Assembly: GCA_019828595.1 (NCBI GenBank)
Contig: JAHQRK010000007.1
Location: forward strand, 1,178,001-1,242,000
Source: Aphanomyces cochlioides
Lineage: Eukaryota; Oomycota; Saprolegniomycetes; Saprolegniales; Verrucalvaceae
Direction of reading: 5' to 3'
Length of the DNA: 64,000 nt
The stretch's first letter is position 1. Every line of letters begins with the position of its first letter. The notes under the pieces are model-generated. The model saw only the letters and a program-made list of their open reading frames with translations, was not told the origin of the DNA and ran no database searches. Shown piece by piece: positions 2,600 through 60,559 of this stretch. Position numbers and translations under genes: made by a program.

Positions 2600-3722
2600 A
2601 TGTCGACCAAGTACCGCTTCGATGGACAAGTTGCGATCGTGACTGGATCTGGCGCTGGTTTGGGCCGCGCATATGCCCTCCTCCTCGCTGAACTTGGAGC
2701 CAAAGTGTAGGTTTTCACGATTTATGTGTCGATATATCCGGTTTTCTAGCATTGTGAACGATGTCGGTCCTGCTCGCGACGGCGGTGTTCGTCCCGCGGA
2801 TCAAGTTGTGAACGAAATCCGCGCCAAGGGAGGTGTTGCTGTTGCCAACTACGATTCGGTCACTGATGGTATAAAAGCGATGCATGATTTTTCAGCCAAG
2901 TGACGATGCAATGTAGGTGCCAAGGTTGTTGCCACTGCAATTGAAGCTTTCGGCCGCGTTGATATCATTGTCAACAACGCTGGTATCTTGCGTGACCGCG
3001 CTTTCCACAAGATGACCCGCGCGGAATGGGATGCAGTCAAGAGCGTCCACCTTGACGGAAGTAAGATATTGTTCAAGTTATCCGATATTAATTCTTGCAT
3101 GTGTAGCTTTTGCTGTCACGCACGCTGCTTGGCCCTACATGCGCCAACAAAAGTATGGTCGCATCGTCAACATCACGTCGGTCAACGGCTTGTACGGTCA
3201 AGCTGGCCAAGCCAACTACTGTATGATCCATTTGTGGTGTCTTGTCTTACTCGTTGTTCGTAGCATCCGTAAAGGCTGGTATGATTGGTTTCACCAAGGC
3301 TTTGGCAAAGGAAGGTTCCCGCTCCAACATTAAAGTGAACGTTGTTGCTCCTGGCGCTGGCTCGAGCATGACTGCCACCGTTCTTCCTGAAAACGTACAC
3401 ACGAGTCACTGCATCGCATGTAATCGCTTTTGTGTAGATTGTCAAGAACTGGAAGCCAGAGTACGTCGCTCCTACGATTGCCTTCTTGTGCCACGAAAGC
3501 GTTCCTTGCACTGGTGCCGTCTTTGAATCCGGTGGAGGCTGGACTGCCCAAGTCAAGTACACGCGTGCTGAAGGCCACTTTTTCGACTTGGAGAAGGAAA
3601 TCAACATCGATGCCGTGGCGAACAACTGGAAGAAGATCACGGACTTCACTCGCGCGACAAACCCTGAAGAAGAAGACGCCGCGAGCTCTCCTCAGATGAA
3701 GCAAATCTTGTCCAAGCTTTAA
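2600..3722 (+). CDS. Short-chain dehydrogenase, peroxisomal multifunctional-enzyme type
   Basis: Six exons (2600-2706, 2750-2868, 2917-3060, 3107-3220, 3264-3394, 3438-3722) join to 900 nt, 299 residues. The five introns are 43-48 bp with GT-AG ends. The Rossmann nucleotide motif TGSGAGLG lies near residue 15, followed by NNAG, the catalytic Ser (ITSVNG) and YSSVK with the Tyr-x-x-x-Lys pair. The segments [18 protein letters not shown] and [18 protein letters not shown] resemble the 3-hydroxyacyl-CoA dehydrogenase domain of HSD17B4/MFE-2, so an NAD-dependent step of fatty-acid beta-oxidation is the likely role. Here the domain stands alone, without the hydratase and SCP-2 domains of animal MFE-2. 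No PTS1 is visible: the protein ends in KL but not SKL-stop in the canonical context (ILSKL), which is in fact close to a PTS1 and compatible with peroxisomal import. Substrate is inferred. Confidence 0.92.
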
Positions 3723-10567: not shown

Positions 10568-11585
10568 ACAAACAACATGCCAATCTCTGCAACTCTTCTC
10601 ATCGTCGACGATAGAAACATTCAAATTTGAAATCATGCCATGGGCTGAATGAGGATGCAATAATAACCAAGTTAGCCAGGAAACTTTAGGCAAAGTGAGA
10701 CGTGCGGTGGTCGGCGACTTCAGTTCCTACAATTGAGAGTTTTGGCAACGCAGTTCCATCCTGGGCTGTTCGCAAATTTGGTGTGAGTGCCTTCCTTCGA
10801 TAGTTTCACTGTGGCATGGACGTAGTCGACAACGACGTCGCTGGCCCACACGTGCGGTGAGGAATTGCCAGCGTAGAAAGCCATGTGGCCTCCAGTGTGT
10901 GTGACGGCAAGGACGACGTTTGGGTTGATCGAGCAGTCTTCGTATGGGATCGCAGTGTGCGAGCTGATGGGATCGTCCTTCGACGACAGACATAGCAGTG
11001 GAATTGCAACGTGCTTGATATCTACGCTGAAACTAAGTCACTGGATTGCCGCTATCAGCTTACATGGCGTGCACGAAGCATCTCGGTAAAGCTCAGTGAC
11101 AGTGTCAAATCTGTGGCAAAGCTAGTCTTCGCGACAACCTCTTGCTTACCCAAAAATGCGACGCGTGTATTGTTCATCATAGTCGCTCAAATATCTGCAC
11201 TTCCGTAGAGCCTCGTAGTCAAGCGCGGGATGGTCTTTGTGAACTTCAGCTGCATTGGACTAGAAAATCAAACATTAAGAACTTGGAGCGCGACGCGACG
11301 TCGAACTTACAAGTTCGAAAAAGTATTTGACCATGCATTTGCCCAAGATCGTGTTGTAAACCACGCGATGAAGCCACGAGTATTTGAGAAGTTGGTAGGT
11401 AGTCGTGCAGCAGTAAGGCCCTGGTCCGCCAAAAAGTTCAGGTTTTACGTTCTCTCAGTACGCAATATGATTGGTCGAGAATAAACCTAGCCCTCTAAAA
11501 TGGTTCTTCGCCAAGAACTTCTCTAGGAGCGGTTCTGGTGCTGTGACTGTGCTTAGTGGTCTCTACTGCTTGGTTTGGCAAGAAA

Positions 11586-12731
11586 ATGGACGAAAAGCTC
11601 GTTGTCGCTACGATTATCACTGTTGCATCTGCTGCCATAGCGGCATACGTTGCCAGTACGGACGGCCGCGAGATTCGAGAAACTGTGCGTCAGCGCTTCA
11701 CAGTGCAAAACGATCAATTCGAGAAGGCATTGAGTGGTGCGGTGAACGGGTGGTTTGTCAGGATGGTTCGATGTGATATCAACACCTTTTTGGAGGTAGT
11801 TCAGCGTATACAACTGGTTTGGAAAGATGTAAATGGTCCCCTTCCAAACAGACTCGGCCAGACGTCGACTATGAAGCGCATTGCTCTATGTATGCATCAT
11901 CTGTCATCCGGTGGAACGATTATGTCCGTCTCAGCTGTGTTTGGCGTTAGCCATACTCTGGTGTCGTCTTTATCAACGAAGTTCTGAGGTGTCTCGTGCA
12001 CCTATCCAAGTCCATATTTCACTCGCCAAGATCAGTCGATTATTGGGCATCTACTGCGGCAGCATTTGAGTCGATTGCTGGGTTCCCAGATGTCATTGGT
12101 GCCGTTGACGGTACTCTTATACGCATTGCCCACCCCGCTGAACATGAGGGTTGGTACTGCAGAAAAGGATTTCCGGCTGTGAATCTGCAAGCGGTGGTTG
12201 ATAGCAGCTTACGCTTTATATCGTGCTCTGTGCGCGCTGGATCAGCAAACGATCAATCTCTCTGGAATCGCTCCGGCTACCGTTTGCATCTCCTACAGCA
12301 TTTCCCAGCAATACCACCTCTTGGGAGACTCTGGATATAAGATTTGGAGGCATCTTGTCACTCCCTACCCTGACCACGAAGCTACAATGTCGTTTTCAAA
12401 ACGTCACTACAATTACTGCCATTCGCGCACGCGAATTCTTGTTGAGCGTGCTTTTGGTTCGCTTAAGAATCGATGGAGAGTTCTCCTCCGCAAACTCGAT
12501 CAAAAGTCCGAAGAGACATTGCGCAATACGATTGTGAGCTGCTTCGTGTTGCACAACTTGATGATTGATCTAAATGACTCGGTTGTTGTTGGTGGTGATG
12601 ATCCATTCGTCGGTCTTAATATTGGTCTTGCTGATACGTTTGTTCACACTGAGAACATGGAAGCTCATGTAGATGGCAAGAAAAAGCGAGAAATACTGAC
12701 GACGTACTTGACGAATATTCATTCACGTTGA
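11586..12731 (+). pseudogene. Harbinger DDE transposase with two frameshifts
   Basis: Three consecutive frames reconstitute a DDE_4-type Harbinger nuclease: 11586-11987 (N-terminal helical region ending at SVSAVFGVSHTLVSS), about 11965-12340 (VHLSKSIFHSP, then the first Asp in PDVIGAVDGTLIRI and NLQAVVD) and about 12305-12731 (second Asp in LLGDSGYKIW and catalytic Glu in RILVERAFGSLKNRWRVL). Changes of one base near 11965 and near 12305 break the frame; the surrounding protein is otherwise well preserved, so the breaks look recent. Introns do not explain them because no GT-AG pair of adequate length fits. The copy is probably not able to make transposase. Confidence 0.85.
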
Positions 12732-12750
12732 ATAGTTATTGAATACTAAT

Positions 12751-13563
12751 CTAATTGCGATGAGCTAGAGCATTCATGAGTTGTTCCATCAATGCATTCT
12801 GTCTTTCTTGCATTTGCACCACACGCTCCATTACATTTCGATTCTCTTCTTGCGACGTGCGAAGGAGCATGGTGATATCATTGTTTGGCTGTGTATTTCG
12901 AAAAGCATCAGTAATTGCTTGCATACCGCGTCCCATTTCTTGTGTAAGGAGGTTTACTCCAGCTTTTGCTTTCGGCTCGTTTTCAAGTTTGATGCGTTTG
13001 ATTGGAGTGCCTTCATCATCGCTGTCGTCCCCGATTTCTTTTTGAGTTTCGTCATAGTCATTCGAGTCGAACATACTCTCGTTTGCGACGCCAGTTCGCC
13101 CCGAAAACCATTGCAGGATGTGCAAGTATCTCGGTGGTTTGGTCTTTATTCCCCCATTGCCAGTACGTCCAATATCATCGCAATGGGCTTTGTACTCGTG
13201 CTTGACTTTTTTATATTTGTCCCGCAGTCGTTTTGCTGACACACCAATACCAACCTCACTCGTTAGAACAGCCGCAAAATAACACCAAAACGTGTCCTTT
13301 TTGTTGTTCGTGTCGGCAGCGAGAAAGCGGCTCACAATCGTAGGGTCGGTAAAACGAAGACGGAGCATGGACCGAATCATATCGTCTGTCCAGTCAAACT
13401 TGGACTCGGTCGTCTTGGTGGTCTGGTTGGTGCCAGCCTTATGAGGAGTCTTGCGTTGCGACTTGCCCTTGGAGTGTGGTGGTGACGTTGTGAGATCGGT
13501 GTCAGCTTGTGCGGCGAGCAAATCATCGAGAAAGCCAGCGGCTGGAGCGCAAGGAGTTGACAT
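12751..13563 (-). CDS. Myb/SANT-like DNA-binding protein of Harbinger 1
   Basis: The open frame of 270 residues starts at an ATG and ends 20 bp from the stop of the convergent transposase gene. Residues 55-150 form a trihelical Myb/SANT-like domain (KFDWTDDMIRSMLRLRF, FWCYFAAVLTSEVGIGVSAKRLRDKYKKVKHEYK). A C-terminal coiled-coil-like helix follows (SQEENRNVMERVVQMQERQNALMEQL). In PIF/Harbinger elements the second gene encodes such a protein, which brings the transposase to the nucleus and the element ends. The frame is intact, unlike its partner. Confidence 0.85.
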   Translation of the reverse strand: MSTPCAPAAGFLDDLLAAQADTDLTTSPPHSKGKSQRKTPHKAGTNQTTKTTESKFDWTDDMIRSMLRLRFTDPTIVSRFLAADTNNKKDTFWCYFAAVLTSEVGIGVSAKRLRDKYKKVKHEYKAHCDDIGRTGNGGIKTKPPRYLHILQWFSGRTGVANESMFDSNDYDETQKEIGDDSDDEGTPIKRIKLENEPKAKAGVNLLTQEMGRGMQAITDAFRNTQPNNDITMLLRTSQEENRNVMERVVQMQERQNALMEQLMNALAHRN

Positions 13564-14004
13564 TCACAGAGAACCAAAAGGACGAAAGACCAGAAATGGC
13601 TGGTCCAATCATGATCATTTTTTACAATGTGCAAAAATCCGGATAGAACCAGAACCAAATCGCGGACCAGGGCCTAAGACCATCTCCAGCAGTCACTGAG
13701 TGTCACACTGAAACTGGATAAAGTCAGTGGATGACAAAATCAGACACTGGATCCATCCCCATCAGACACTGAATCCGACACTGGAACTGAGTTTCCAAAA
13801 CCCGGCCTCGGACTTTTGGTGTCGGCGACACGGAGAAATACCAAAATACTCCGTGTCTGGAGAAGACACTGAGTGTTCAGATCATTCCAACTTTCAAACA
13901 TTAAAATAAAAACACAAGTATACAATTTTCAAAGTAAAAATTAACACAATAAAAGACAATACAATGTCGAAGACATTTTTATTTGCACATCATTCGTCTG
14001 GAGA

Positions 14005-14667
14005 ATGTCCGTGTGGATGAACGAGGCCGAGAACGAGGTCTTGTGCAAGGCCTGGGTCCATGTGTCAGAGGACTCGTCAACAGGCACGGGTCAGAAGTCT
14101 GCTACGTTTTGGGAGTCTGTCGGTGTATTCTACAATGCTAAGAGGCCAGAAGGAAGGCCGGCTCGAACAACAAGAGCCTTGGAAACCAAGTTTGGCGTCA
14201 TCAAACATGATGTCAGCAAGTTTTGTGGTTTCTACGCCCATGCAATGGACCTCCAGGCAAGTGGGACGAACTCCGACGACCTTCTTGACAGTGCTCGCAC
14301 AATGTATTTCGACGCCACGATCGACAAGACTGGAAAAAAAAAACATTTTAAGTTCATCGAATGCTGGAGATTCCTCCGAGACAAACCAAAATGGCAAGTT
14401 TACCGCGAAGGCATCTCCGGTCAAGGGCATGGCACAAAGAAAAGACAATCTGAAGCGTCCGAATTAGATATTCCATCAGCTATATCTACTTCGTCCGCTT
14501 CGGGTAATCTTTCCTTCGTGCCACGTCCCCAAGGTGTAAAAAATGCAAAAAAACTCAAGCTCGAAAGTCAAATTGTAGCCAAGAAGGATGAAGCAATTGC
14601 TTTTGCCACCTCCCGAGTTGCAAAAGCCATAGAGAATAAAGCAAGTGCGCAAGCCATTATCGTTTGA
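14005..14667 (+). CDS. Myb/SANT-like protein of Harbinger 2
   Basis: An intact 220-residue frame from an ATG. The region MNEAENEVLCKAWVHVSED through TTRALETKFGVIKHDVSKFCGFY matches the general pattern of the plant PIF/Harbinger second ORF (a SANT-like domain with NAM-associated C-terminal part): conserved Trp residues, FW and a basic recognition helix. The C-terminal part is Lys/Ala-rich. Its 3' end runs up to, and slightly past, the truncated end of the convergent transposase, which suggests that an internal deletion brought the two together. Confidence 0.7.
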   Translation: MSVWMNEAENEVLCKAWVHVSEDSSTGTGQKSATFWESVGVFYNAKRPEGRPARTTRALETKFGVIKHDVSKFCGFYAHAMDLQASGTNSDDLLDSARTMYFDATIDKTGKKKHFKFIECWRFLRDKPKWQVYREGISGQGHGTKKRQSEASELDIPSAISTSSASGNLSFVPRPQGVKNAKKLKLESQIVAKKDEAIAFATSRVAKAIENKASAQAIIV

Positions 14668-15464
14668 ACCTGGCACTCCAAAAAATGCGTGCCATATCCA
14701 CAAATTCTGTGTAGCTATAGCTTCAAGAATACCACCACGATCTTGGAATTGTCCCTGCCATGCCACCGGACAATTCTTCCACTCCCAATGAGTGCAATCA
14801 ATGGAGCCGAACATGCCAGGAAACCCACGAGTCTCGTTTTCATGAAGATGCTTCTCAATATCGTCCAGCGTTGGTTGTCTGAGATAGCATTGTTCAAATT
14901 CACCAAGAACAGCTGCGCAAAATCGTTTTAACGCTTCAGCCGCAGAGCTTTCGCCAAGACGGCAATACTCATCTGTAGCGTCGGCGCTTAGGCCGTATGC
15001 AAGCATTCGAAGAGCTGAAGTACACTTTTGTATAGTTGATAATCCTATTGAATAGTCTGAGTCAAAGTACTATCGAGATATATCTTGCCTAGAAGTCCAG
15101 CGGCATTTGATTTTTGTTCAAAGTAATTGTCTCTGGTGGATACAGCTTTACATATACGAAGGAATAGCTCACGAGGCATGCGAAATCTTCGTCGGAATAT
15201 CTTGTCGTTGTAGATAGGAGCGCGATCACTGCACCCAAAATAGTCTCGCATTATTCGTTGGTGGCCTTGGAACGCCTCCCTGTTTACGTTCGGGCTGCGT
15301 CCAGGCAGAGAGCCTCCATGTTTTGCTTTCTTTGCTGGTTGAGCTATGGTCAATCGCTCGTGTAATACGTGGTGCATCACGGATACAACTACGTGGTCTT
15401 CTTCGTCCGAGGAATCCAGAACATCCTTGGATAAACGTGCGAGTTTCTCGTGCCAAGCGGCCAT
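14664..15464 (-). pseudogene. Truncated Harbinger (ALP1-like) transposase of element 2
   Basis: Two frames, 15464-15045 and 15006 downwards, encode the N-terminal two thirds of a plant-transposon-protein (ALP1-like) transposase. Recognisable parts are RIMRDYFGCSDRAPIYNDKIFRRRFRM, GLSADATDEYCRLGESSAAE, the first catalytic Asp in FPGMFGSIDCTHWEWKNCPVAWQGQF, and IWHAFFGVPGSNDN. The protein stops being homologous near 14664, so the second Asp and the Glu are missing. A stop separates the two frames near 15040. The copy cannot encode an active enzyme. Confidence 0.8.
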
Positions 15465-16011
15465 TGTTCGGAATGACAAGTGAGTGAAGACAACCTTCAG
15501 AATACATATTATACAGTATTAAATTTTGCGAGTTCCTGGGAGAAAACCAGAGTGACTGGTGGGGAGATTTTTGCAACGACACATACTCTGGCTTATCTGC
15601 GCAAGAAATGCCACTGAGAAAAATTCAGTTTCAGTGTTGAAACTCAGTGACTGCTGGAGATGCTCTAAGGGTTACATATGAGGACACGGAAAACAAAAAG
15701 TACCTTAGCCACCTTTTGCATTTTTCGAGAAAATGGCCTTCAAAGTCGATGCATGATATTCAGTGGTGATTTTTCCGTTTGACGAAAATCGAAAAAACAG
15801 TTGGAATAAAAAACAGTGATCTGTTGCAATCTGATTTGGAAGCAGCAATGAAAACAAAATCGAACAGAGCTCAAGCGAGAAATACCAGACTCAAGGCAGT
15901 CAAGCCAAACAAACGCGTTGAACTCAAACTAGTTGGACCTGAAGAGTGCCCTTCATTCGACATTGTTTCTTCAGGCATTGTTGATGACGATGATGGTCTA
16001 GACGCCAGAGA

Positions 16012-16170
16012 AATCAAATTCAGGCTTATTGACGCGATAGAAACCACTTCAGAGAAATCAAAACCAGTCTTATTGACACGATAGAAATCAAAATCAGTCT
16101 TAATGCCACCATAGAAATCAATTTCAGTCTAATTGACTTGCTCGAAATCAAAAACAGTCTTATTGCCAAA
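16012..16170. repeat. Degenerate 30-bp tandem repeats inside the mariner element
   Basis: About five copies of a unit near GAAATCAAAATCAGTCTTAT continuing with TGACACGATA, with substitutions and one 12-bp interruption. It lies between the left terminal repeat and the transposase ATG. A short open frame (15779-16084, no ATG at its start) runs into it. Subterminal repeats can be transposase-binding sites; that is inference. Confidence 0.75.
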
Positions 16171-16408
16171 ACATTGTTTTAAACTGTTGAAAAAAACATC
16201 AACGCACTTTTCGATCCTGTTTTTCTATGTCATTGAGTATGAATTCATTGATCAATACAGTATCAAACGATTCAGCACAAAATTCTCTTTTTGGAAATAT
16301 TGTAATTTCCAAATTCTTTGCAAAAAACAAACTTTTATTATTTGAAAAAAATATTTTGTTATCTCGAAATGGACAATTATCGAACGCTCGTGCAAGGCAC
16401 AAAACACG

Positions 16409-17503
16409 ATGCAACGTTCAGGGGGGTTGTGGAACTCTCGACGACTTCAACAGCTCGTGATTGATATGCATGAGTGCGGACAAACTCCATCCCAAATTAT
16501 TCAATCAATGCCCCGAACGCTTCATCTTGTGACCGTTTACCGTTGGATCAAGCATTTTCAGCTCTTTGGACAGCTCCCCTGTGAAACGAAACGCCTAAGG
16601 CATCGGTGTTGTACCACTCGACTTGAGGGTGACGACATTATCCAGCTCAAGCACATTGCAGAAGAAAGCCCTCATCTCTATCTCGATGAGATGCAAGAAA
16701 ATCTCTTCCTCAGAACGGGACACTGCTACGCACTTTCGACAATCCATCGATCGCTTCAAACACTTGGATTAACCTTGCAAGTATTGACAGCAAGAGCGAC
16801 ACAGCAAGACGAAATTTGTCGTTCTCAATTCCTTGATGCAATCCGACGATATGATACCCATTGCCTTTTATTTGTCGATGAAACACATAAGGGTCGCAAT
16901 GTTGCAAGACGTCGACGTGGATGGGGCGTACGTGGTCAGCAGAACTGTGTCAGTGAAATATTTGGCCCAACGTGTGAACACCGCTTTACGCTACTTGCTG
17001 CTGCTGATCAGGACGGTTTCTTGCCTCAAGCGTGTCAGCTAGTACAACGAAAAATGGATCCAAATGATGACGATTTAACACTCGGAACAGTTGATACTGA
17101 TGGATTTCTATTCTGGACGAGACGATATTTGCTTCCGTGTCTTGGAAATTTCCTACTCAACGAAGCGCGAAGTGTGGTGGTGATTGACAATGCTACAATC
17201 CATCATAGCCCAGAGTTTGAGCAGCTTGTTCAGTCAGTTGGCGCAATCGTGCTCTACACAGCACCATTCTCACCTGACCTGATGCCCATCGAATATTGCT
17301 TTCACGTGTACAAAGCAAGTTTGAAACGCAATTCAAATTTGACTCGCGCCCGATTTTGGGATGCTCACATGGACGCGCTGGCATCTGTTGATCGATCGAT
17401 GATGTTGAACTTCATGCGAAATTGTGGTCTCGATGTTGAAATTGTCGATGATGATTTGAAACAATGCATGCTCCTGTACGCCTTAATCGAGGAATCCACT
17501 TAG
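16409..17503 (+). CDS. Tc1/mariner-superfamily transposase (DDE_3, DD34E)
   Basis: An intact 364-residue frame. The N-terminus is a helix-turn-helix of the homeodomain-like kind (RLQQLVIDMHECGQTPSQII, HLVTVYRWIKHF) followed by a second DNA-binding part. The catalytic core has the first Asp in LLFVDETHKG, the second in VVVIDNATIHH and the Glu in SPDLMPIEYCF. Exactly 34 residues lie between the second Asp and the Glu, the DD34E signature of Tc1-like enzymes. The spacing between the two Asp residues is longer than usual. It cuts and pastes the flanking element at TA sites. Confidence 0.93.
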   Translation: MQRSGGLWNSRRLQQLVIDMHECGQTPSQIIQSMPRTLHLVTVYRWIKHFQLFGQLPCETKRLRHRCCTTRLEGDDIIQLKHIAEESPHLYLDEMQENLFLRTGHCYALSTIHRSLQTLGLTLQVLTARATQQDEICRSQFLDAIRRYDTHCLLFVDETHKGRNVARRRRGWGVRGQQNCVSEIFGPTCEHRFTLLAAADQDGFLPQACQLVQRKMDPNDDDLTLGTVDTDGFLFWTRRYLLPCLGNFLLNEARSVVVIDNATIHHSPEFEQLVQSVGAIVLYTAPFSPDLMPIEYCFHVYKASLKRNSNLTRARFWDAHMDALASVDRSMMLNFMRNCGLDVEIVDDDLKQCMLLYALIEEST

Positions 17504-18042
17504 ATTTCATTAGTTGGAGAATAAAAAAAGCCTAGGTCCATCAATGATTTGTATTCATCAATAAACGATGCTGGAGAAGGCGTCATTGTATGTGGAGGCT
17601 CTGACGTGGCTTGCACTAGATTGGCAAGCATCTTTGTATTTCGATCATGCAGCAAAACTTTCACCATTTGTCGGATTTCGTTAGATGGGATCAGCCCTTG
17701 ATTTTGCGCTTCTTTTGCAACATAACGAAGGGCGCTAATCCAGGTATCACATCCCATTTCCATTTGGCGCGATTTCATTTGCACTAGAGCTGCTAGTGTG
17801 TCAGCAAGAGATGATGTCGGTGGCTTGAAAACGAATGTGGGTGGCTTGTTAGTTCCTTCACTAGGGGGGAATTTGTCTTTCATTGGCAGCTCACCATTTC
17901 CACATGCCTTCTGTGCGGTACGATGCTCCCAGTCTAGAAATTCCAATTCCTCAAACAGTTGAACAAAATCCTCTACATCGAGCATTGCGCCATACTTGAT
18001 CGTTTTCGAAGGGTGTTGATTCAAATAATTTGCCAAGAACAT
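17500..18042 (-). CDS. Accessory protein of the mariner element, C-terminal frame
   Basis: A 180-residue frame that I do not recognise. It starts at an ATG 22 nt upstream of the stop of the preceding frame (18021-19187) and ends 4 bp inside the transposase stop region. Its composition is coding-like (MLDVEDFVQLFEELEFLDWEH; helical, Met-rich segment LADTLAALVQMKSRQMEMG). It is most simply the C-terminal part of one protein of about 560 residues broken by a one-base frameshift, but a separate gene is possible. The stop is convergent with the transposase stop with a 4-nt overlap. Confidence 0.6.
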   Translation of the reverse strand: MFLANYLNQHPSKTIKYGAMLDVEDFVQLFEELEFLDWEHRTAQKACGNGELPMKDKFPPSEGTNKPPTFVFKPPTSSLADTLAALVQMKSRQMEMGCDTWISALRYVAKEAQNQGLIPSNEIRQMVKVLLHDRNTKMLANLVQATSEPPHTMTPSPASFIDEYKSLMDLGFFYSPTNEI

Positions 18043-19187
18043 TGCATGTCGTGAGTGTGATCATGGTAATATGGACTCAAAGGATTGGAATATACGGCTT
18101 GAACAATTTTCTCAGCAATCGACATGGAGATTTTGCTGTCTGCACTCGCTTTCTTGTTGGAGTCAGCAATGTCCGAAGGTAAAGGGGTTGATATGTCAGA
18201 CTGTGAAAAGTGGAACTCGCCATCAATCGTAGCAGTCACCAGACAATCACTTGCCATCGGGCCACTCCCAAAGGCAATGGTCAATGTTTTAATACCTGCA
18301 GCATGTGGCATAGAGCGTACAATTTGCCTCATCATTCGGGTGTCAATAATATGCTCCATTTTTGTCCCTGATCCACAAGCTTTGTAAACTCCTCCATGCT
18401 TTTGATCAATCTGGGCAAGTGCTCGTCTAGCGGTATCATTTCCAGAGTGCAAATGTTCAAAGCAACGCACGCGTAAATCGCCCAAAGACAACGTTGTCAG
18501 CAACTCAAGTTCCGGAAGTTCCAAAGTTGCAACAATTGCTTTTGAGCCATGCACTTCTTTGCCTGATCTGAATTCACGTGTTGAACGTTTTGACTTGCCT
18601 TCGTGCAAATAAATTGGGGGACAAATCACAATCTGAACTGTGGTTATACGAATGCGCTTTGATCTTCCTTCTCCATCTTCATGATATACTCGCTTGGGTT
18701 GTTTCTTTGTCCATAAGATAACGTCTACTTCGACGCTGACGCTCGACAAGTCTGAGTAACGAGGCGATGTCAACGATTCAGTGTTGTCTTTCAAAAATGT
18801 TTCCCAGTCATCTTCATTTCGTATTGCCGAACGAATCCGCTTTATTCCTCCCGGCCAACGAGCAAGAAACAATGCCTCTTGACGATGCGACGTGTTTGGC
18901 TCTTTCCATAGTGGATCGTCAATCGAATCGTAAACGTCAAGGAGGGAGTCTCGAATGTCAACGGCCGTTGTGTTCAAAGGGAGAATTGAGTCATATCTTC
19001 CGCTTAGAGGGTTGAAACGTCGGCGTCTCTGAGGAGCTCGTGTATACGTTGAACACGAACGTTCGTTCTTCCACAGGACGATGCATCTCTCTGTTTTCAC
19101 AATGCGCGCCAAATCATCTATCCGGATATTGGTGAATATTTCTCGGCTATTTCTTTTTCTTTTTTGCAAAGAATTTGGAAAATACAA
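18021..19187 (-). CDS. Accessory protein of the mariner element, N-terminal frame
   Basis: A 388-codon frame of unknown family. No ATG lies near its beginning (first codon TTG), so an upstream exon or a 5' frameshift is likely. Visible features are a conserved-looking globular start (DDLARIVKTERCIVLWKNER), a segment rich in Asp and aromatic residues (DVYDSIDDPLWKEPNTSHRQEALFLARWPGG), a basic patch (EGRSKRIRITTVQIVICPP) and a Ser/Lys-rich tail. There is no catalytic motif I can name. Its place in the element, antisense and convergent to the transposase, resembles the two-gene layout of Harbinger elements rather than a simple mariner. Confidence 0.6.
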   Translation of the reverse strand: MYFPNSLQKRKRNSREIFTNIRIDDLARIVKTERCIVLWKNERSCSTYTRAPQRRRRFNPLSGRYDSILPLNTTAVDIRDSLLDVYDSIDDPLWKEPNTSHRQEALFLARWPGGIKRIRSAIRNEDDWETFLKDNTESLTSPRYSDLSSVSVEVDVILWTKKQPKRVYHEDGEGRSKRIRITTVQIVICPPIYLHEGKSKRSTREFRSGKEVHGSKAIVATLELPELELLTTLSLGDLRVRCFEHLHSGNDTARRALAQIDQKHGGVYKACGSGTKMEHIIDTRMMRQIVRSMPHAAGIKTLTIAFGSGPMASDCLVTATIDGEFHFSQSDISTPLPSDIADSNKKASADSKISMSIAEKIVQAVYSNPLSPYYHDHTHDMQCSWQII

Positions 19188-20349
19188 TACATAAATCTCA
19201 AAATGACATTTTTGGTCGAAAATTGGGATCCATCACCTTCAAGCCTTCATAACTTTGGACTCGAGCGTCATTTACGAGATGTTAAGGTGTCAAAATGTAG
19301 CTCGAAGACTCTGGTTTGTGATGCAATAGCTAACTCAAACGTTGCACGATGGTTGATTAGCCACATTTTGTTTTCTGTGTCCTCATATCGAGTCTGCCGA
19401 CGTCAGCTGAGCGTTCTTGCCTTCTTCGCCCAAGTACTTGACGAGCAAGTTGGCCCCCAGCGAAAAGCCAACGCCGATGAGAAGGACTCTTGCTCCAATG
19501 CGCTGACGAATGTGCACGACGGACTCGCGCAAGTCATTTGTGCACCCCAAACTGAAAAGCTAAAGACAAGCATGAGCGATCCATTCTGCAGCGCGATCAG
19601 TACCTTTGGGGTCCGTACTGGCGTCTTGTTGCATCCTCTGGCATTCATGACAACAACTCGATAGCCAGCTTTCAACAACCGATCAGCATGCATGCGAATG
19701 TAAATCTAAGACTTGAGTTAGATGCAGTCAACGGAGACGACGTTTACCGCCCGACTGCCGCCTGTAAGACCGTGAAGTAGAAGCTGGAGGGGGGCTAGTC
19801 AAACGACATGAGCAAGAAAGATGAGCTTACCACAGTCGGCTGGTTGATTTGCCGTTAAGGTGTAGCAAGTGTCGCCCAGTCAAGTGCTACAACCCCGCCG
19901 TCTGAGAGTTTGAGGAGTTCTCGCTCGTAGGGAACACTTGAATTCGGAGCTTCATGGTTCAGATTGAGGAGAAGGGAGTGCAAATGACTTCAAGGAGATG
20001 AGATAACGAGCAAAGAAGACAATCTTACGCCCAGAATAAATATTAAGTTGGATGATATGGCTCCTCTATGACCATTGTGAGGGCTTGACGACAACGAACG
20101 ATGAGATTACCGAGTATGGGGCAAGATTGCAGGATGCGATTGTTCACTTTGGACGGTTTGTACGTGAGTTGAGGTTTCCTCGCGGCCAACCAGTAGTGCA
20201 GTTGGTTCAGCGCCAAACAAATCCTGTCGAGGCCAATGAGCCACAGGGCTGCACATGCGCTCAATATACGTAACAAGAACAACTAGCCATGTCAAATCAT
20301 CCCTCGTGATTGTACTACCGCGACGTACACTAAACGTGGCGACGTCCAT

Positions 20350-21294: not shown

Positions 21295-23355
21295 CTCATA
21301 CGACAGGTTCCGTGACATGTTTTAACAGCACACATTGAGCGACTTACTATTTGCTGCACACAGTAATATATAGTGGGTTCGATAGAGGAAGAAAAACGCA
21401 GGTTGTTGATGGAAAAAAAACATGGTGTTCCAAGATAAAAACGTGATGAATTTTTGACTTATGATGGGCACAAATAATCCTGATGGCATATTCCGTGACA
21501 TCACTATCCGTATCCGGAAAACCTCACAATACGCCAGCAACTACCATGTGCTCAGTTTCGTCGTGGACCGCGCGTTTGCGCTTGCGTCGCGTGGGCTTTT
21601 GCTTGTCCTCCATCGCCATAGTTCTTCTTTCCATCTTTTCTTTGTTCTTGATTGCAACTTGCAGTTTCTTCAAGACAGCAGCAGAGCGTCGTATGTCGCG
21701 TGCTTTCTTGTTTTCGGCCATAACGCGTTGCTTTTCAAGGTACGCGTCTTCTCTCTCCTTCACGGCCTTTATAATTGCTTCTGTAGTCATCAAGCAGCCC
21801 CCGTGAACCCATGTGTCTTGTACCTTTGGGGCTTTCAAGCGTTGCTTCATCTCAATCAAATGAGATGTGTTCAGATGGACGACTCGAGCTGCATCGGGAT
21901 CAATGTTGAGCTCTCGAAGCAAGACATCAGCCGCGGGTGAAATGGAGATTGCTGGCTGGATAAGCACTGTTCGTTGCATTGAGTGTGGCTGATCACCAAC
22001 TATCTTTGATAACATCACATCCAAGCACAAAGGCCACAGTCCGGTCTTCTCAAAACCACTTACAATGTTTGCCCTTGAGACGCTTTTGGCCAAAGCCCGA
22101 GATCCAACGGCAACCATGTCACCCAGCTCTGGCGTTGTTTTGTTTAACGATATGAAATTGACAATTTCTTTGTCCAGATTGCGTTTGAAATGGAAAAAAA
22201 CTGTTGCGTCAAGTGGCTGCAAAAAGTGTGATGTGTGTGATGGAAGCGCATACAGCAGTAGACCATTCTCCTTTGCATAAGCAAGTGTTCAAGCCGACCA
22301 ATGGGCTTTGTATCCATCCATGCACAACAAAACAGGTCGCTGGGGGGCAATTTGGTCCACAAACCAAGTAAAGTATTGAACAAAAAGCTTCGTTGTCAAG
22401 AATGACGATTCGGAAGCAGCAAAGTTTGAGCCTTCCATGGCACCGTGAGTCCACCGCTGTGCAATATTTTTTCCAGGGAATATAAAGAAATGTGGCAAGT
22501 AGTCCCCTGCAGCATTCATACAGACCAATGCAGATACGTTTCGACGGCATTGTGAGGTCTGAACGTTAGCCGCTTGTCCCTTTGGAGCAATGACTCGTCG
22601 TTTGTTTCTTGAACCTTGGGCACACATGCCAGTTTCGTCCAAATTCCTTAGCCGTTCGGGTGTAATGCCATTGTCGCGAATAACTTTCTCAATTGCAGAA
22701 TAGTGATCAGTGACGACTTCCTCCGTGCTTCGCATTGCACGATTGGTCTCTAAAAACTGCGCTTGTCGGTGTGATATTTTGTCTTTGTGGCGCTTGACGA
22801 ATCGTTGAACGAATCGTTTGGATGGAAAACCACTTGGAATTATGCGTGCGTGGGGGCTTTCGTCAATACAGCGACGGATGAACCCAGCCAACTCGTTGTT
22901 TGTAAAGCATTGGCCGTGTTGGGCGCGCTGATTGATGGCGTCTATCAAGCCCATCTCCTCGCCCTGGGTAAGAACTGAAACTGGTCCGTTGGTTGCATTC
23001 ACTTCGACAGTCCCTTTAAGACGCCGATCGAGGAGCATGCGACCAATGCCATGTTTGGCAGCAGCGCCTCTGCAAGACATGTTGTTATCTCGGACATCAA
23101 TAAGGGCCATTTCAACCCTCTGGAGAAGATCTTCATCCATAGCGGAACCCTGAAGGTCTTGTTGGAAGGGGGAGAAATGACGTATCACCCACAAAACTTC
23201 GTCGATTTCTCTGTTTCGAACGGCAATACGTCGTGTCTGTGATTGGTCAGAATCGCGTCTTTTTATTATCATTAAATGAGCCAATCCTTGCGAGGCAAAA
23301 GCGCGAGATGACAAATGTCACGGAATGTGTCGTGTCACGGAATTTGTCGTGCAAG
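21295..23355. mobile_element. pogo-like DNA transposon
   Basis: A 2061-bp element flanked by TA (21293-21294 and 23356-23357). Terminal repeats are imperfect: CTCATACGACAGGTTCCGTG on the left and, complemented, CTTGCACGACAAATTCCGTG on the right (18 of 23 positions alike). A further copy of the TGTCACGGAAT motif sits just inside the right end. It carries one minus-strand DDE_1 transposase with a single stop. The boundaries rest on short repeats. Confidence 0.75.
21524..23272 (-). pseudogene. DDE_1 (pogo/Tigger/jerky-like) transposase with one premature stop
   Basis: One frame runs from an ATG near 23272 (or the better-placed ATG at 23140, MDEDLLQRVEMAL) to 21524, broken only by an in-frame TGA at 22289-22291. 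The N-terminus has a pipsqueak-type helix-turn-helix (NMSCRGAAAKHGIGRMLLDR), then the CENP-B-like second DNA-binding part, then the catalytic region with LRNLDETGM (first Asp), RPVLLCMDGYKAHWS (second Asp) and the downstream QPLDATVF. The frame resumes without shift after the stop (LAYAKENGLLLYALPSHTSH). The C-terminal 100 residues are Lys/Arg-rich. A single base substitution separates it from a full frame. Confidence 0.88.
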
Positions 23356-27890: not shown

Positions 27891-29616
27891 ATGAGCGCAA
27901 TGGATGCGACTATTGAGTCGTTCACGCTCAATAAGTACTGGGCAGCTTCCATGCCGGCGGTGCGTGCACAAATTCATTTGATTTTGAATAAAAGTCTGGC
28001 GATATAGGACCATAAAGCTTGTGCTCTCTTGGTAGCGAGTGGATTGTTTTTGCCGCTTTTGTACTCAGTGGGTCTATCGATTCTCCATCAAATCCACTAC
28101 TGGTGTACTGCCAGACTTCCTAGCTTAACGTATCATGAATCGTCGAAGCTGGTTGATCGTATTCTTCAATCGTGTCCTCTGCTTGGTATGGCAGTCTTTC
28201 GATTATCTCATCACTGTTTCTTCCAGTGCAGCCTTACCATCCAACATGGTTCTTGTTCAACGGGTATTATTCCTTGGTATGATGAATCGTTTGTTAAGCT
28301 GCTTCTAGCCATTTGCAATCGGCGCGAGTCATGGCAGAAGATGAAGACATTCATCCTCAAGTTCAATACAAGCGAGAACTTCTTGATCTCTCGGATGGTG
28401 GCGTTGTCTCCTTGGACTGGGCTACATTTGCATCTGCCGAAGATCAAATCAATCAACCTACTGTGGTATGTGTGATTGCATGAAGCCCTGCATCACTTTC
28501 TCGTGATATAGCTCATGTTTCATGGCCTTGCTGGCAACAGCCAAGCGGTTCGTTCTTCATACGCCTCCCATCGCGCACTATGACGGCTCTTTTGTAGAAA
28601 TATGCTCGAGTCCAAGCCGACAAACTCCTCAACGCTGGCTTTCGTGTGGTTGTTATGAACGCCCGGGGTTGTGGTAAAACTCCTGTACGAACACCAAAGG
28701 TATGCAGTCGGTCATGTCGTCAATATCTAAATGTCTTCGCCAAAGCTATTCTGCGCTGCATACACTGAAGACGCACGCGAGGCTGTTATTCATATTCGTC
28801 AGCGCATCGGGGCTACGGTTCCCCTTATTGGTCTTGGCTTTTCTCTTGGGGCTAACATTTTGCTCAAGTACTTGGGTGAAGAAGGTAGCAGCGCTCAGCT
28901 CACAGCAGCCGTTTCAATCTGCAACCCGTACTGCTTCACGGCTACGTATCAGTTGCTCACATATTCGTGGTTCCACCGTGTTGTGTACAACAGCACACTT
29001 GGGAAATGCCTCGTCCGGTTCTTCTTTGAACATGTGCGTTCATTATTCAATGTTGAGCTCATTTTGGCATAGTCGAATGCTCCTGAGACGCACGAAGACC
29101 ATCCTGACATCGACTTGAAAGCGTTGAGAAATGCAAAATACATTAGCGACTACGATGATCTGTACACGCGTCGTATCTACGGGTATGACACTGTAGCCGA
29201 GCTTTATCGTGATGCGTCGTGCACACCTTGTACGTCTCGCTGGCTTGTGTCATGTTAAGCATGTCGTAGATATCAAAAAGATTGCCGTTCCTGCCTTGTG
29301 TATTTCGGCAAAAGACGATCCAGTTTGTGCAGCCGTGGCGATTCCATATCTCGATTGCAAAGTGAATCCCAATGTTTTGCTTGCGGTCACACACGGGGGT
29401 GGTCACATTGGCTTATTCACAGGGCAATGCAAACCCAAAATGTGGTGGAGCGATGTCGCCTTGCAATATTGCAAGACCATCGTTGAAATGACTCAGGAAG
29501 GCCTTGTCTCGACCAACTTGCGAGCGGTGCAGGAGAACGGCGCCCTTTCGCCAGAGACGACAGTGCCTGAAACAAGTAATTTGCGCCACCGAGGAGCCAC
29601 AGTTGCTTCGTTGTAA
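27891..29616 (+). CDS. EMB8/YheT-type alpha/beta hydrolase, intact paralogue
   Basis: Nine exons (27891-27959, 28008-28185, 28227-28263, 28309-28465, 28512-28547, 28598-28699, 28746-29033, 29073-29229, 29270-29616) join to 1371 nt, 456 residues. An N-terminal hydrophobic helix (VASGLFLPLLYSVGLSIL) suggests membrane anchoring. The fold follows: QPYHPTWFLFNGHLQS, DGGVVSLDWA, LMFHGLAGNS, VVVMNARGCGKTPVRTPK, nucleophile Ser in GLGFSLGAN, acid Asp in AKDDPVC, His in GGGHIGLF. The family (ABHD1/ABHD3 in animals, EMB8 in plants, YheT in bacteria) contains lipases and phospholipases; the substrate is unknown here. It is the functional relative of the broken gene at 10720-20349, 7.5 kb away and in the opposite orientation. 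Confidence 0.92.
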
Positions 29617-56105: not shown

Positions 56106-56919
56106 ATGGCGGAAAATCCTTCAATTATGGCAAAAACAGTCCACGACATTCGTGACATCATGAATGCTCTCAATTATGACGACCTCGCCATGCATTTCGA
56201 CCAAGAAGCCGACGAAATTGATCCCTACGTCGTTTGTGAAGGAGTGTCTGTGGATGTTTTCAATAAGTACGTTGATGAAGAAGACGAAAGCCTGCCGGTT
56301 CGACTTCAATTTCTCGACCTCAGTGACGATGGGCGCCTTGATCGTGGACCTTGCAACGACAGTGCATGAGAGCACCAAATGTGTCCTTGGAACCGAGTTC
56401 GTCTTTGCAAGTGGAAATAGACATGCAATTGGGAAGCGTGGCTCGATGACAGTGAGTAGAAATGCGCTTCCCCACAAGGGAGCCGATGCAACTTATGGGC
56501 CAATGCGGGATACACTCAACCGAACACCACCACCGCCACCTCGAACGGTCTCTGACTGGGTGACATTTGCTGTGGAGGTTGGAAGAAGTCAAACCTGGGA
56601 GAGTCTCACAAGAGCTGCGAGATGGTGGGTTGGATATATTGGTATCCAGTACATTCTGTTGTTGAAAGTGAATGCCACAGCGACCGAGTTGGAGTACCGC
56701 CAGTATGCCATCGTTTGCCTTGGGACCTTTCCAGATCCACCAACAGTGAGTGGGGTAGTTCGACGCGATGCTCCACCCGATGCCGTTGCTGATAGTGTCG
56801 CCTTCAACATGCGTCGTATCTTATCCATCCCAGCGCATGATGCTCTTCCTGAGGGTGTAAATGAAGCCGCTGTCGTCAACCTGCGCGATGTCTTGAATCA
56901 AGTGTGGCGTCATATCTAG
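56106..56919 (+). pseudogene. Near full-length copy of the local family with one frameshift (copy D)
   Basis: The ATG at 56106 opens MAENPSIMAKTVHDIRDIMN, then VVCEGVSVDVFNKYVDEED and LQFLDLSDDGRL, where the frame breaks near 56336-56340. It continues in another frame as LIVDLATTVHESTKC through GADATYGPMRDTLNRTPPPP, DWVTFAVEVGRSQTWESLTR, WWVGYIGIQYILLLKVN and FNMRRILSIPAHDALPEGVN to a stop at 56919. The family, intact at 59321-60319, is unknown to me. The C-terminal half has the pattern of a PD-(D/E)xK or Uma2-like nuclease core (DATYGP, then AVEVGRSQ); this is inference. Confidence 0.75.
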
Positions 56920-59320: not shown

Positions 59321-60319
59321 CTAGATGGGATGGCTGAAACCTCCATAGACGATATTCAGAACGTTGCGCAGGTCAACATCAGCGAAGTCGTTCACTCGCT
59401 CGGGGAGAGCTTGATCGACAGGGATAGACAAGATACGGCGCATGTTGAACGAGACAATGTCTCCTGGATTTGGCGCTTCGTTTCGTCGAACTGTTCCATT
59501 CGCTGTTGGTGCATCTGGAAGAGGCCCTGGGATGACTATGTCGTAGAGACGATATTCCAACTCGGTCGCGTCGTCATTCACTTTCAGCAGCAGTATGTAC
59601 TGAATGCCAACATATCCAGCCCACCATGTTGCTGTTCTTGTCAGACTGTCCCATCCTTGACTTTTTCCAGCCTCCACCGCCAGTGTCACCCAGTCGTTGA
59701 CTGTGCGATGTTGCGGCGGTGGTGTTCGATTGGGTGTATCCTCCCTCGGTCCATAGCTTGCGTCAGCCTCCTTGTCGTGAGCCCCAACTCGGTGTGCCGT
59801 CATCGAGCCTCCTAGCGCAATCGCATCTCCGTGTCCCATTGCAGACAAGAACTTGGCCTCAAAGAATCTCGTGATGCTTTCATGCAGTCTTGATGGAAGT
59901 TCCACAATCAATAGACGTCCGTCGTCAGCGAGGTCGAGGAAACGTAATGCAAACCGCAGCTCTTCACCATCGGCAACATACTCGTTGAAAGCTTCAACAG
60001 AAACGCCGTCGCAAACGACAAAGGGACCGGCATCGTGGTCAAGATGATTGGCGACGTCGTCAAAGTCGACTTCGGAGATAATGCGTTGAATGTCCGCCGC
60101 CGTCCTTGCCTGTGTCGTGGCGGGCATGATTGCGAGAGCAGTAGATTTTTCTTCGATTTCTGGAGCTGCAGACTTCTCTTCGATAGCGCGAGCAGAAGAT
60201 TTTTCTTCGATTGCTGGAGCTCCAGGTTTCTCGTCAGTTGCTTCACTGTGTCTAGCCTTCTTGGACTTGGGCTCGCAGGAGTAAAACGATTCGCCGTCGC
60301 GTGAACTTGGGACACTCAT
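59321..60319 (-). CDS. Lineage-restricted protein with a possible Uma2/PD-(D/E)xK-like domain (copy F)
   Basis: The only intact member of the local family: 332 residues from the ATG at 60319 (MSVPSSRDGESFYSCEPKSK). Residues 15-60 are basic then imperfectly repeated (PAIEEKSSARAIEEKSAAPE). Residues 75-160 hold DIQRIISEVDFDDVANHLDH and VVCDGVSVEAFNEYVADGEE. The second half has DASYGPREDTPNRTPPP, VTLAVEAGKSQGWDSLTRTA, WWAGYVGIQYILLLKV and FNMRRILSIPVDQALPE. The spacing Asp (DASYGP) to Glu (AVEAGKSQ) followed by a helix and hydrophobic strand recalls Uma2-type nuclease folds. That assignment is a guess; no catalytic Lys is evident at the xK position. Confidence 0.65.
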   Translation of the reverse strand: MSVPSSRDGESFYSCEPKSKKARHSEATDEKPGAPAIEEKSSARAIEEKSAAPEIEEKSTALAIMPATTQARTAADIQRIISEVDFDDVANHLDHDAGPFVVCDGVSVEAFNEYVADGEELRFALRFLDLADDGRLLIVELPSRLHESITRFFEAKFLSAMGHGDAIALGGSMTAHRVGAHDKEADASYGPREDTPNRTPPPQHRTVNDWVTLAVEAGKSQGWDSLTRTATWWAGYVGIQYILLLKVNDDATELEYRLYDIVIPGPLPDAPTANGTVRRNEAPNPGDIVSFNMRRILSIPVDQALPERVNDFADVDLRNVLNIVYGGFSHPI

Positions 60320-60559
60320 CTTTTCTTTCGGAAAAATGGGAATGGACAATCGGTCCGAAAATCTGAACGGGATTGCAGCACTTTCTGCGGTGAAGAGACG
60401 ACCTCTTCGAAAGCATCATGCAGTGATCAATTGAATATTGCACTCTTCCCTTCAAGGCATGAGATGAGCGCTGCTGTGTCGAATATGAACAATACGATAG
60501 GCGTACTGTATGTTTGCCGTCACTCCTTGTAAATTTGACTGTGTTCACATCTGGATTGA

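What the first reader, a model, noticed from the sequence alone, without database searches (positions are those of the whole stretch)
11411..19400. Three transposons of two superfamilies inserted within 11 bp of a single exon; excision in silico restores the frame
Reading the minus strand across 19395-19386, the 11-bp sliver at 15668-15678 and 11416 downwards, and leaving out the three elements plus one copy of each TAA or TA duplication, gives ADSICNPYCCTTTYQLL, which aligns codon for codon with AVSICNPYCFTATYQLL in the intact paralogue at 28900-28960. This proves the element boundaries to the base and shows that at least three independent insertions hit the same few bases. Either the site is an unusual hotspot or the first insertion made the region permissive.
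Basis: seen in the sequence. Interest (0 to 1): 0.9.

Follow-up and report, generated by a model that had tools for sequence, protein, structure and literature searches.

The report
Transposon pile-up inside one oomycete gene
Four jumping genes, not three, sit within a few bases of each other in one enzyme gene of what appears to be a sugar-beet root-rot organism, and two of them share a single three-base landing mark, a pattern that recurs elsewhere in the same genome.

Summary
Other copies support the ends. Aligned separately, the two host flanks leave exactly the sliver's length in the paralogue and five residues in 20 of 22 homologous proteins.

E3 is not one element. It is a pogo-like non-autonomous copy into which a two-gene Tc1-like element (E4) jumped; 10 of 10 inspected E3 relatives carry the empty E4 site. 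So there are four elements.

E1 and E2 abut with one shared TAA. The same TIR-TSD-TIR arrangement (up to 3 mismatches) occurs at 20 sites in this genome, this one included (14+4+2; reversed-pattern control 0); 16 were inspected. Best reading: a resident Harbinger's duplicated TWA is itself a favoured target, also for other Harbinger families. For E3's nearness nothing beyond chance is shown. Transposon dimers of this sort are known elsewhere: a new variant of a known kind.

The parts
19388..20300 (-). upstream part of the interrupted alpha/beta-hydrolase gene (approximate outer limit)
   Evidence: piece 19542-19387 aligns to paralogue 28763-28918; 95% identical to A. euteiches P0005
10720..11413 (-). 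downstream part of the interrupted gene (approximate outer limit)
   Evidence: piece 11415-11147 aligns to paralogue 28929-29185; exon pieces 88% and 97% identical to P0005
15669..15676 (-). 8-bp host sliver between E2 and E3
11417..13674 (+). E1, PIF/Harbinger element: DDE_Tnp_4 reading frame 12183-12728 (+), weak Myb/SANT-like frame 12754-13563 (-)
   Evidence: 98% identical full-length copy at C7:68734-70995
11414..11416 (.). TAA duplication, outer left
13675..13677 (.). single TAA shared by E1 and E2
   Evidence: a mixed E1-type/E2-type junction is found once more, with other elements, at C23:934273
13678..15665 (-). E2, PIF/Harbinger element, internally deleted: truncated Plant_tran frame 14479-15069 (-), NAM-associated frame 13945-14664 (+)
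   Evidence: Plant_tran matched at profile 3-83 of 205; the copy at C6:890037-892719 holds about 766 bp more at query position 986
15666..15668 (.). TAA duplication, outer right
15677..15678 (.). TA duplication, left of E3
15679..16297 (+). E3 left part: non-autonomous pogo-like element
   Evidence: relative L076 encodes HTH_Tnp_Tc5 plus DDE_1
19190..19385 (+). E3 right part
   Evidence: continuous with the left part in other copies
19386..19387 (.). TA duplication, right of E3
16300..19187 (+). E4, Tc1-like element nested in E3, flanked by TA 16298-16299 and 19188-19189
   Evidence: four further copies elsewhere; TA at 10 of 10 ends, two of them the window's; 10 of 10 inspected E3 relatives have the empty site
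16346..17500 (+). E4 transposase frame, 385 codons, DDE_3, DD34E spacing
17500..19232 (-). E4 second gene region (ORF2), convergent; broken into two frames in this copy (the frames as listed run slightly past the element)
28331..29616 (+). intact paralogue, six exons predicted by me from frames and splice signals
   Evidence: 97% identical to A. euteiches P0003

Best explanation
An alpha/beta-hydrolase gene that has a paralogue nearby was hit by four separate cut-and-paste transpositions. One Harbinger (E1 or E2; order not shown) inserted at a TAA and duplicated it. The second Harbinger, from another family, then inserted exactly into one of the duplicated TAAs, leaving the two elements abutting with one shared TAA. 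A pogo-like non-autonomous element (E3) separately took a TA 8 bases away, and a two-gene Tc1-like element (E4) later jumped into E3. Shown: boundaries, duplications, E4 after E3, recurrence of the shared-TSD junction. Inferred: that the resident TIR-TSD junction attracts new Harbingers, perhaps because every Harbinger end of these families supplies the preferred C beside TWA, perhaps also because transposase already bound at the resident end guides the new one.
For: TSD identity in 25 of 26 other Harbinger copies or family members. TIR|TNA|TIR junctions at up to 3 mismatches: 14 E2-type, 4 E1-type, 2 mixed (the window among these), reversed-pattern control 0 in each. 16 of the 20 were inspected; in 12 the two sides differ within about 20 bases, so these are not simple mirror copies. 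Random placement predicts about 0.02 E2-type junctions, 0.49 if only CTWAG sites were usable (from 234 exact E2-type ends); even the four E2-type junctions without any mismatch, at three loci, exceed this. C precedes TWA in 18 of 44 half-sites against 19.7% background, p = 0.001. Empty E4 sites in 10 of 10 inspected relatives. The predicted protein of the likely A. euteiches orthologue, P0005, runs through the site.
Against: Two tandem members (C15 middle element, C11 right element) carry TTA on one side and TAA on the other, which plain serial insertion does not predict. Four of 16 inspected junctions are near mirror images and could be inverted duplications; the two C78 junctions, both among the 12, belong to one mirror-symmetric structure. 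Four of 20 were not inspected, two of them matching only at 3 mismatches. The randomness estimate uses the window's TWA density and ignores transposon clustering; spacings other than exact abutment were not surveyed. Order of E1 and E2 is undetermined.
Confidence: 0.7

Rival explanations
1. Plain accumulation: after the first insertion the gene was dead, so further transposons were tolerated there and landed together by chance or in a transposon-rich, open region.
For: The surroundings are transposon-rich: for example a DDE_1 transposase frame at 22289-23317. The gene flanks hold only 24 TWA sites, so re-use of one is not very rare. This probably does explain E3.
Against: It does not predict base-exact re-use of a duplicated TWA at up to 20 sites genome-wide.
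Confidence: 0.2
2. Abutting Harbingers are made by end-joining: elements excised with sticky TTA/TAA overhangs are ligated together at a break, giving one TSD between them.
For: Passages of PMC4561436 propose that mPing cleavage at the TSD leaves a 5' overhang. Two tandem members have centre-mismatched TSDs.
Against: At the window site the three TAA copies are identical, as serial insertion predicts; 5 of 7 assessable tandem members have matching TSDs.
Confidence: 0.15
3. E1 and E2 moved in together as one composite unit.
For: They share one TAA and are bounded by TAA outside.
Against: A mixed E1-type/E2-type junction occurs only here and once more, with different elements (up to 3 mismatches); E1's and E2's best copies lie apart, on C7 and C6.
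Confidence: 0.03
4. One reading: three elements, the third a single 3.7-kb Tc1-type transposon.
For: The outer inverted repeats and TA duplications are real.
Against: Inner and outer parts have separate copy distributions, and the inner part has its own inverted repeats and TA duplication.
Confidence: 0.01

Closest known systems
Transposon dimers by double insertion into a TSD (McGurk and Barbash, Drosophila; seen only as cited in passages of the review PMC12628747)
   Same: second insertion into the duplicated target; insertion-site preference as main cause
   Different: [quoted passage not shown] here PIF/Harbinger, a 3-bp TWA, and in two cases elements with E1-type and E2-type ends side by side (window; C23:934273)
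Pithovirus M1/M2 MITE-like repeats (passages of PMC10664404)
   Same: neighbouring elements share one target duplication
   Different: TA duplication, palindromic repeats in repeated M1-M2 patterns in a giant virus, no transposase found in the annotations; the paper itself doubts transposition for one example
PIF, Pong/mPing (PIF/Harbinger; passages of PMC2836001 and PMC4561436)
   Same: TTA/TAA duplication, target preference reaching beyond the 3 bp, two element-encoded proteins
   Different: no shared-TSD tandems are described in the passages seen
Coral CMITE tandem arrays (passages of PMC2872659)
   Same: full-size MITEs in tandem
   Different: piggyBac-related, highly similar units and spacers, ascribed there to replication slippage

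Membership tests
PIF/Harbinger (E1) | 3-bp TWA duplication | tested here: met
   window and C7 copy TAA on both sides
PIF/Harbinger (E1) | Harbinger-type DDE transposase | tested here: met
   DDE_Tnp_4 66.6 bits, cut-off 24.8, profile 72-158 of 158 in one frame; the N-terminal part is not in that frame
PIF/Harbinger (E1) | second Myb/SANT-like gene | tested here: inconclusive
   Myb_DNA-bind_4 22.0 bits, below cut-off 27
PIF/Harbinger (E2) | TWA duplication and inverted repeats | tested here: met
   family members
PIF/Harbinger (E2) | complete transposase | tested here: not met
   Plant_tran 104.9 bits but profile positions 3-83 of 205 only: a deleted, non-autonomous copy of the family
pogo/Tc5-like (E3) | TA duplication | tested here: met
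   TA on both sides in the window; 9 of 14 other ends, 5 of 14 not
pogo/Tc5-like (E3) | own DDE_1 transposase | tested here: not met
   absent from E3; present in the relative L076, HTH_Tnp_Tc5 49.9 and DDE_1 47.4 bits, above cut-off: E3 is placed as a non-autonomous relative
Tc1/mariner (E4) | TA duplication | tested here: met
   10 of 10 ends, two of them the window's
Tc1/mariner (E4) | DDE transposase with DD34E spacing | tested here: met
   DDE_3 52.0 bits, cut-off 28.6; invariant D178, D281, E316 in the two-sequence alignment, assigned as catalytic by me
Tc1/mariner (E4) | single gene (usual form, recalled) | tested here: not met
   a second convergent gene is kept in a relative whose transposase is 56% identical
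Transposon dimer by double insertion | second element in the TSD of the first | tested here: met
   window: three TAA around E1 and E2
Transposon dimer by double insertion | dated order of two insertions | not testable with these tools
   needs strains with a partly filled site

The most novel reading that the evidence does not exclude
Harbinger transposases in this oomycete recognise a resident Harbinger's TIR-TSD junction as a privileged target across family borders, so that each insertion makes the next landing pad and elements of different families chain up through single shared TWA triplets (at C15 two complete elements, 1064802-1065411 and 1065414-1065642, and the near end of a third from 1065645, whose far end was not found).
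Probability: 0.35. Interest if true: 0.65.

Novelty: new variant of a known kind. Interest (0 to 1): 0.48.

Why it matters
If TIR-TSD junctions are real targets, a Harbinger insertion changes where later ones go with single-base precision. That would explain clustered insertions without any special chromatin, would give a start for composite elements and satellites, and could be tested directly with known active Harbingers in yeast. It also warns that in-silico removal can hide nested elements: the third element here was two.

Tried and rejected
E3 as a single element: rejected. Joint arrival of E1 and E2: no further E1+E2 copy seen. Coral-type slippage arrays: the two sides differ in 12 of 16 inspected junctions. 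AlphaFold of the E4 second protein from a 3-sequence alignment gave mean pLDDT 37.7 and was not used. For that protein no Pfam family reached its cut-off and no solved relative was found up to E 1. Literature: nine searches, of which I saw listings, and passages of ten papers (an eleventh, PMC12595863, had no occurrence of my terms). No listing or passage that I saw describes shared-TSD tandems of PIF/Harbinger elements; but Jiang and Wessler 2001 on nested MITEs is not held and most subscription journals are not, so a prior report is possible. A search for A. cochlioides with 'genome' and 'transposable' listed six papers, none of which I opened.

The chance estimate is rough: TWA density is from the window only. 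Junctions C2:2212407, C5:515535, C21:426589 and C56:907286 were not inspected. For the target statistics I dropped, from the 26 other sites, L079 and L075 (tandem members), L086 (same flanks as L083) and L089 (unequal TSD). In the count of E3-family ends I dropped two chance matches and one more distant end; that scan lists identical contexts once.
Full report
What was checked. The window is G000:C67:1178001-1242000 of a 76.2-Mb genome in 94 contigs. C67 is 3,046,785 bases long, the same as the longest contig given for an Aphanomyces cochlioides protein, P0019, so I take it to be that species (a sugar-beet pathogen; recalled). The interrupted gene is an alpha/beta hydrolase: its own flank pieces hit no such Pfam family, but they align to the intact paralogue, whose pieces hit Hydrolase_4 and Abhydrolase_1 below cut-off, and to full-length homologues carrying those domains. 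Nothing seen suggests a toxin or effector.

Boundaries. Exact coordinates: TAA 11414-11416, E1 to 13674, TAA 13675-13677, E2 to 15665, TAA 15666-15668, eight host bases, TA 15677-15678, E3 to 19385, TA 19386-19387. The ends agree with other copies: identical 3-bp duplications at 25 of 26 other Harbinger sites, the exception being L089; 22 of the 25 are TTA or TAA, 3 are TCA or TGA. TA lies at 9 of 14 other E3-family ends, not at 5, and at 10 of 10 E4 ends, two of them the window's.

Continuity of the host exon. To avoid joining the gene, each flank was aligned alone. Right flank: paralogue 28763-28918; left flank: 28929-29185; ten bases between, matching sliver plus duplication remainder at 7 of 10. 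Of 22 homologous proteins (E up to 1e-60), 20 leave exactly five residues between the two pieces; P0019 and P0022 gave no usable left match. In many of the 20 the end of a piece was extrapolated without gaps. P0005 of A. euteiches is the likely orthologue (95, 88 and 97% identity for three pieces); its predicted protein runs through the site, so the simplest reading is that the insertions came after the two species parted. Its DNA was not looked at.

E3 is a nested pair. The E3 query split in two: positions 1-622 and 3509-3709 recur together without the middle, and the middle recurs without them at four other places. E4 has its own inverted repeats (28 of 30) and TA duplication. All ten E3 relatives inspected carry the uninterrupted site. 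A longer E3 relative, L076, encodes HTH_Tnp_Tc5 and DDE_1 domains, so E3 is a non-autonomous pogo/Tc5-like element. E4 carries a DDE_3 transposase with DD34E spacing.

The shared TAA. E1 and E2 abut with a single TAA. Pattern searches (up to 3 mismatches) for two Harbinger ends separated by TNA gave 14 E2-type, 4 E1-type and 2 mixed sites, the window included, with none for the reversed pattern. I inspected 16 of these 20: in 12 the two sides differ within about 20 bases (two of the 12 belong to one mirror-symmetric structure at C78); 4 are near mirror images. At C15 two complete elements and the near end of a third are chained. The genome has 234 exact E2-type ends against 2 for the control. 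With about 1.17 million TWA sites, random placement predicts about 0.02 E2-type junctions, or 0.49 if only CTWAG could be used; four E2-type junctions at three loci have no mismatch at all. Copies prefer C beside TWA (18 of 44 half-sites, background 19.7%, p = 0.001), and the E1 and E2 ends, which begin with G, supply that C. Against simple serial insertion, two tandem members have TTA on one side and TAA on the other, which end-joining of sticky TSD ends could give (PMC4561436, passages).

How unlikely is the pile-up. The two host flanks hold 24 TWA and 59 TA in 1607 bp. By my own rough reckoning from these, a second Harbinger re-using the same TWA and a TA element landing 8 bp away are each of the order of several per cent, together a few in a thousand, for a case picked because it was striking. 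The weight therefore lies on the genome-wide recurrence, not on this locus.

Order. E4 came after E3. Nothing here dates E1 against E2 or either against E3. If E1 came first, its right-hand TAA would have had the preferred C on both strands, which fits the weak preference; that is a hint only.

E4's second gene. A convergent 539-codon frame is open in two other copies, and a 578-codon relative sits beside a diverged transposase in L077. Between the lineages the transposases are 56% and the ORF2 proteins 50% identical; ORF2 dN 0.47, dS about 3.4, near saturation, while dS of the transposase could not be computed. Nine loci plus one weak match carry ORF2 here; seven of the nine sit beside a transposase match; the other two were not followed. 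Outside this genome two A. euteiches proteins were found and no others (in one search only the 8000 best candidates were scored). The window's own ORF2 is broken.

Verdict. Real, well delimited, partly misread. The new part is the recurrent, partly cross-family, shared-TSD chaining of Harbingers; the principle of transposon dimers through a TSD is already in print (PMC12628747, passages).

Noticed in passing
window 17500-19232 (-); L077 2097-3830 (-): E4 carries a second, convergent gene of unknown family, found so far only in Aphanomyces, kept beside a DD34E Tc1-like transposase in two diverged lineages.
   Followed up: partly
L120, L118, L124: Some junctions hold a solo 9-11-base TIR tip between two TWA triplets, like a remnant of a lost element.
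   Followed up: no
G000:C78:482863-483395 (L115): Mirror-symmetric structure: a 64-bp Harbinger-like unit on each side of a 401-bp one, with inverted outer flanks.
   Followed up: no
window 22289-23317 (-): A further DDE_1 transposase frame lies between the interrupted gene and its paralogue.
   Followed up: no
L075 (G000:C1:519000-522700): An E3-family copy is itself filled by a 404-codon DDE_Tnp_4 (Harbinger-type) frame and by an E1-type MITE.
   Followed up: partly
window 56164-56919 (+) and 59321-60415 (-): Two similar-looking open reading frames in opposite orientation, perhaps a duplicated gene; judged by eye only.
   Followed up: no
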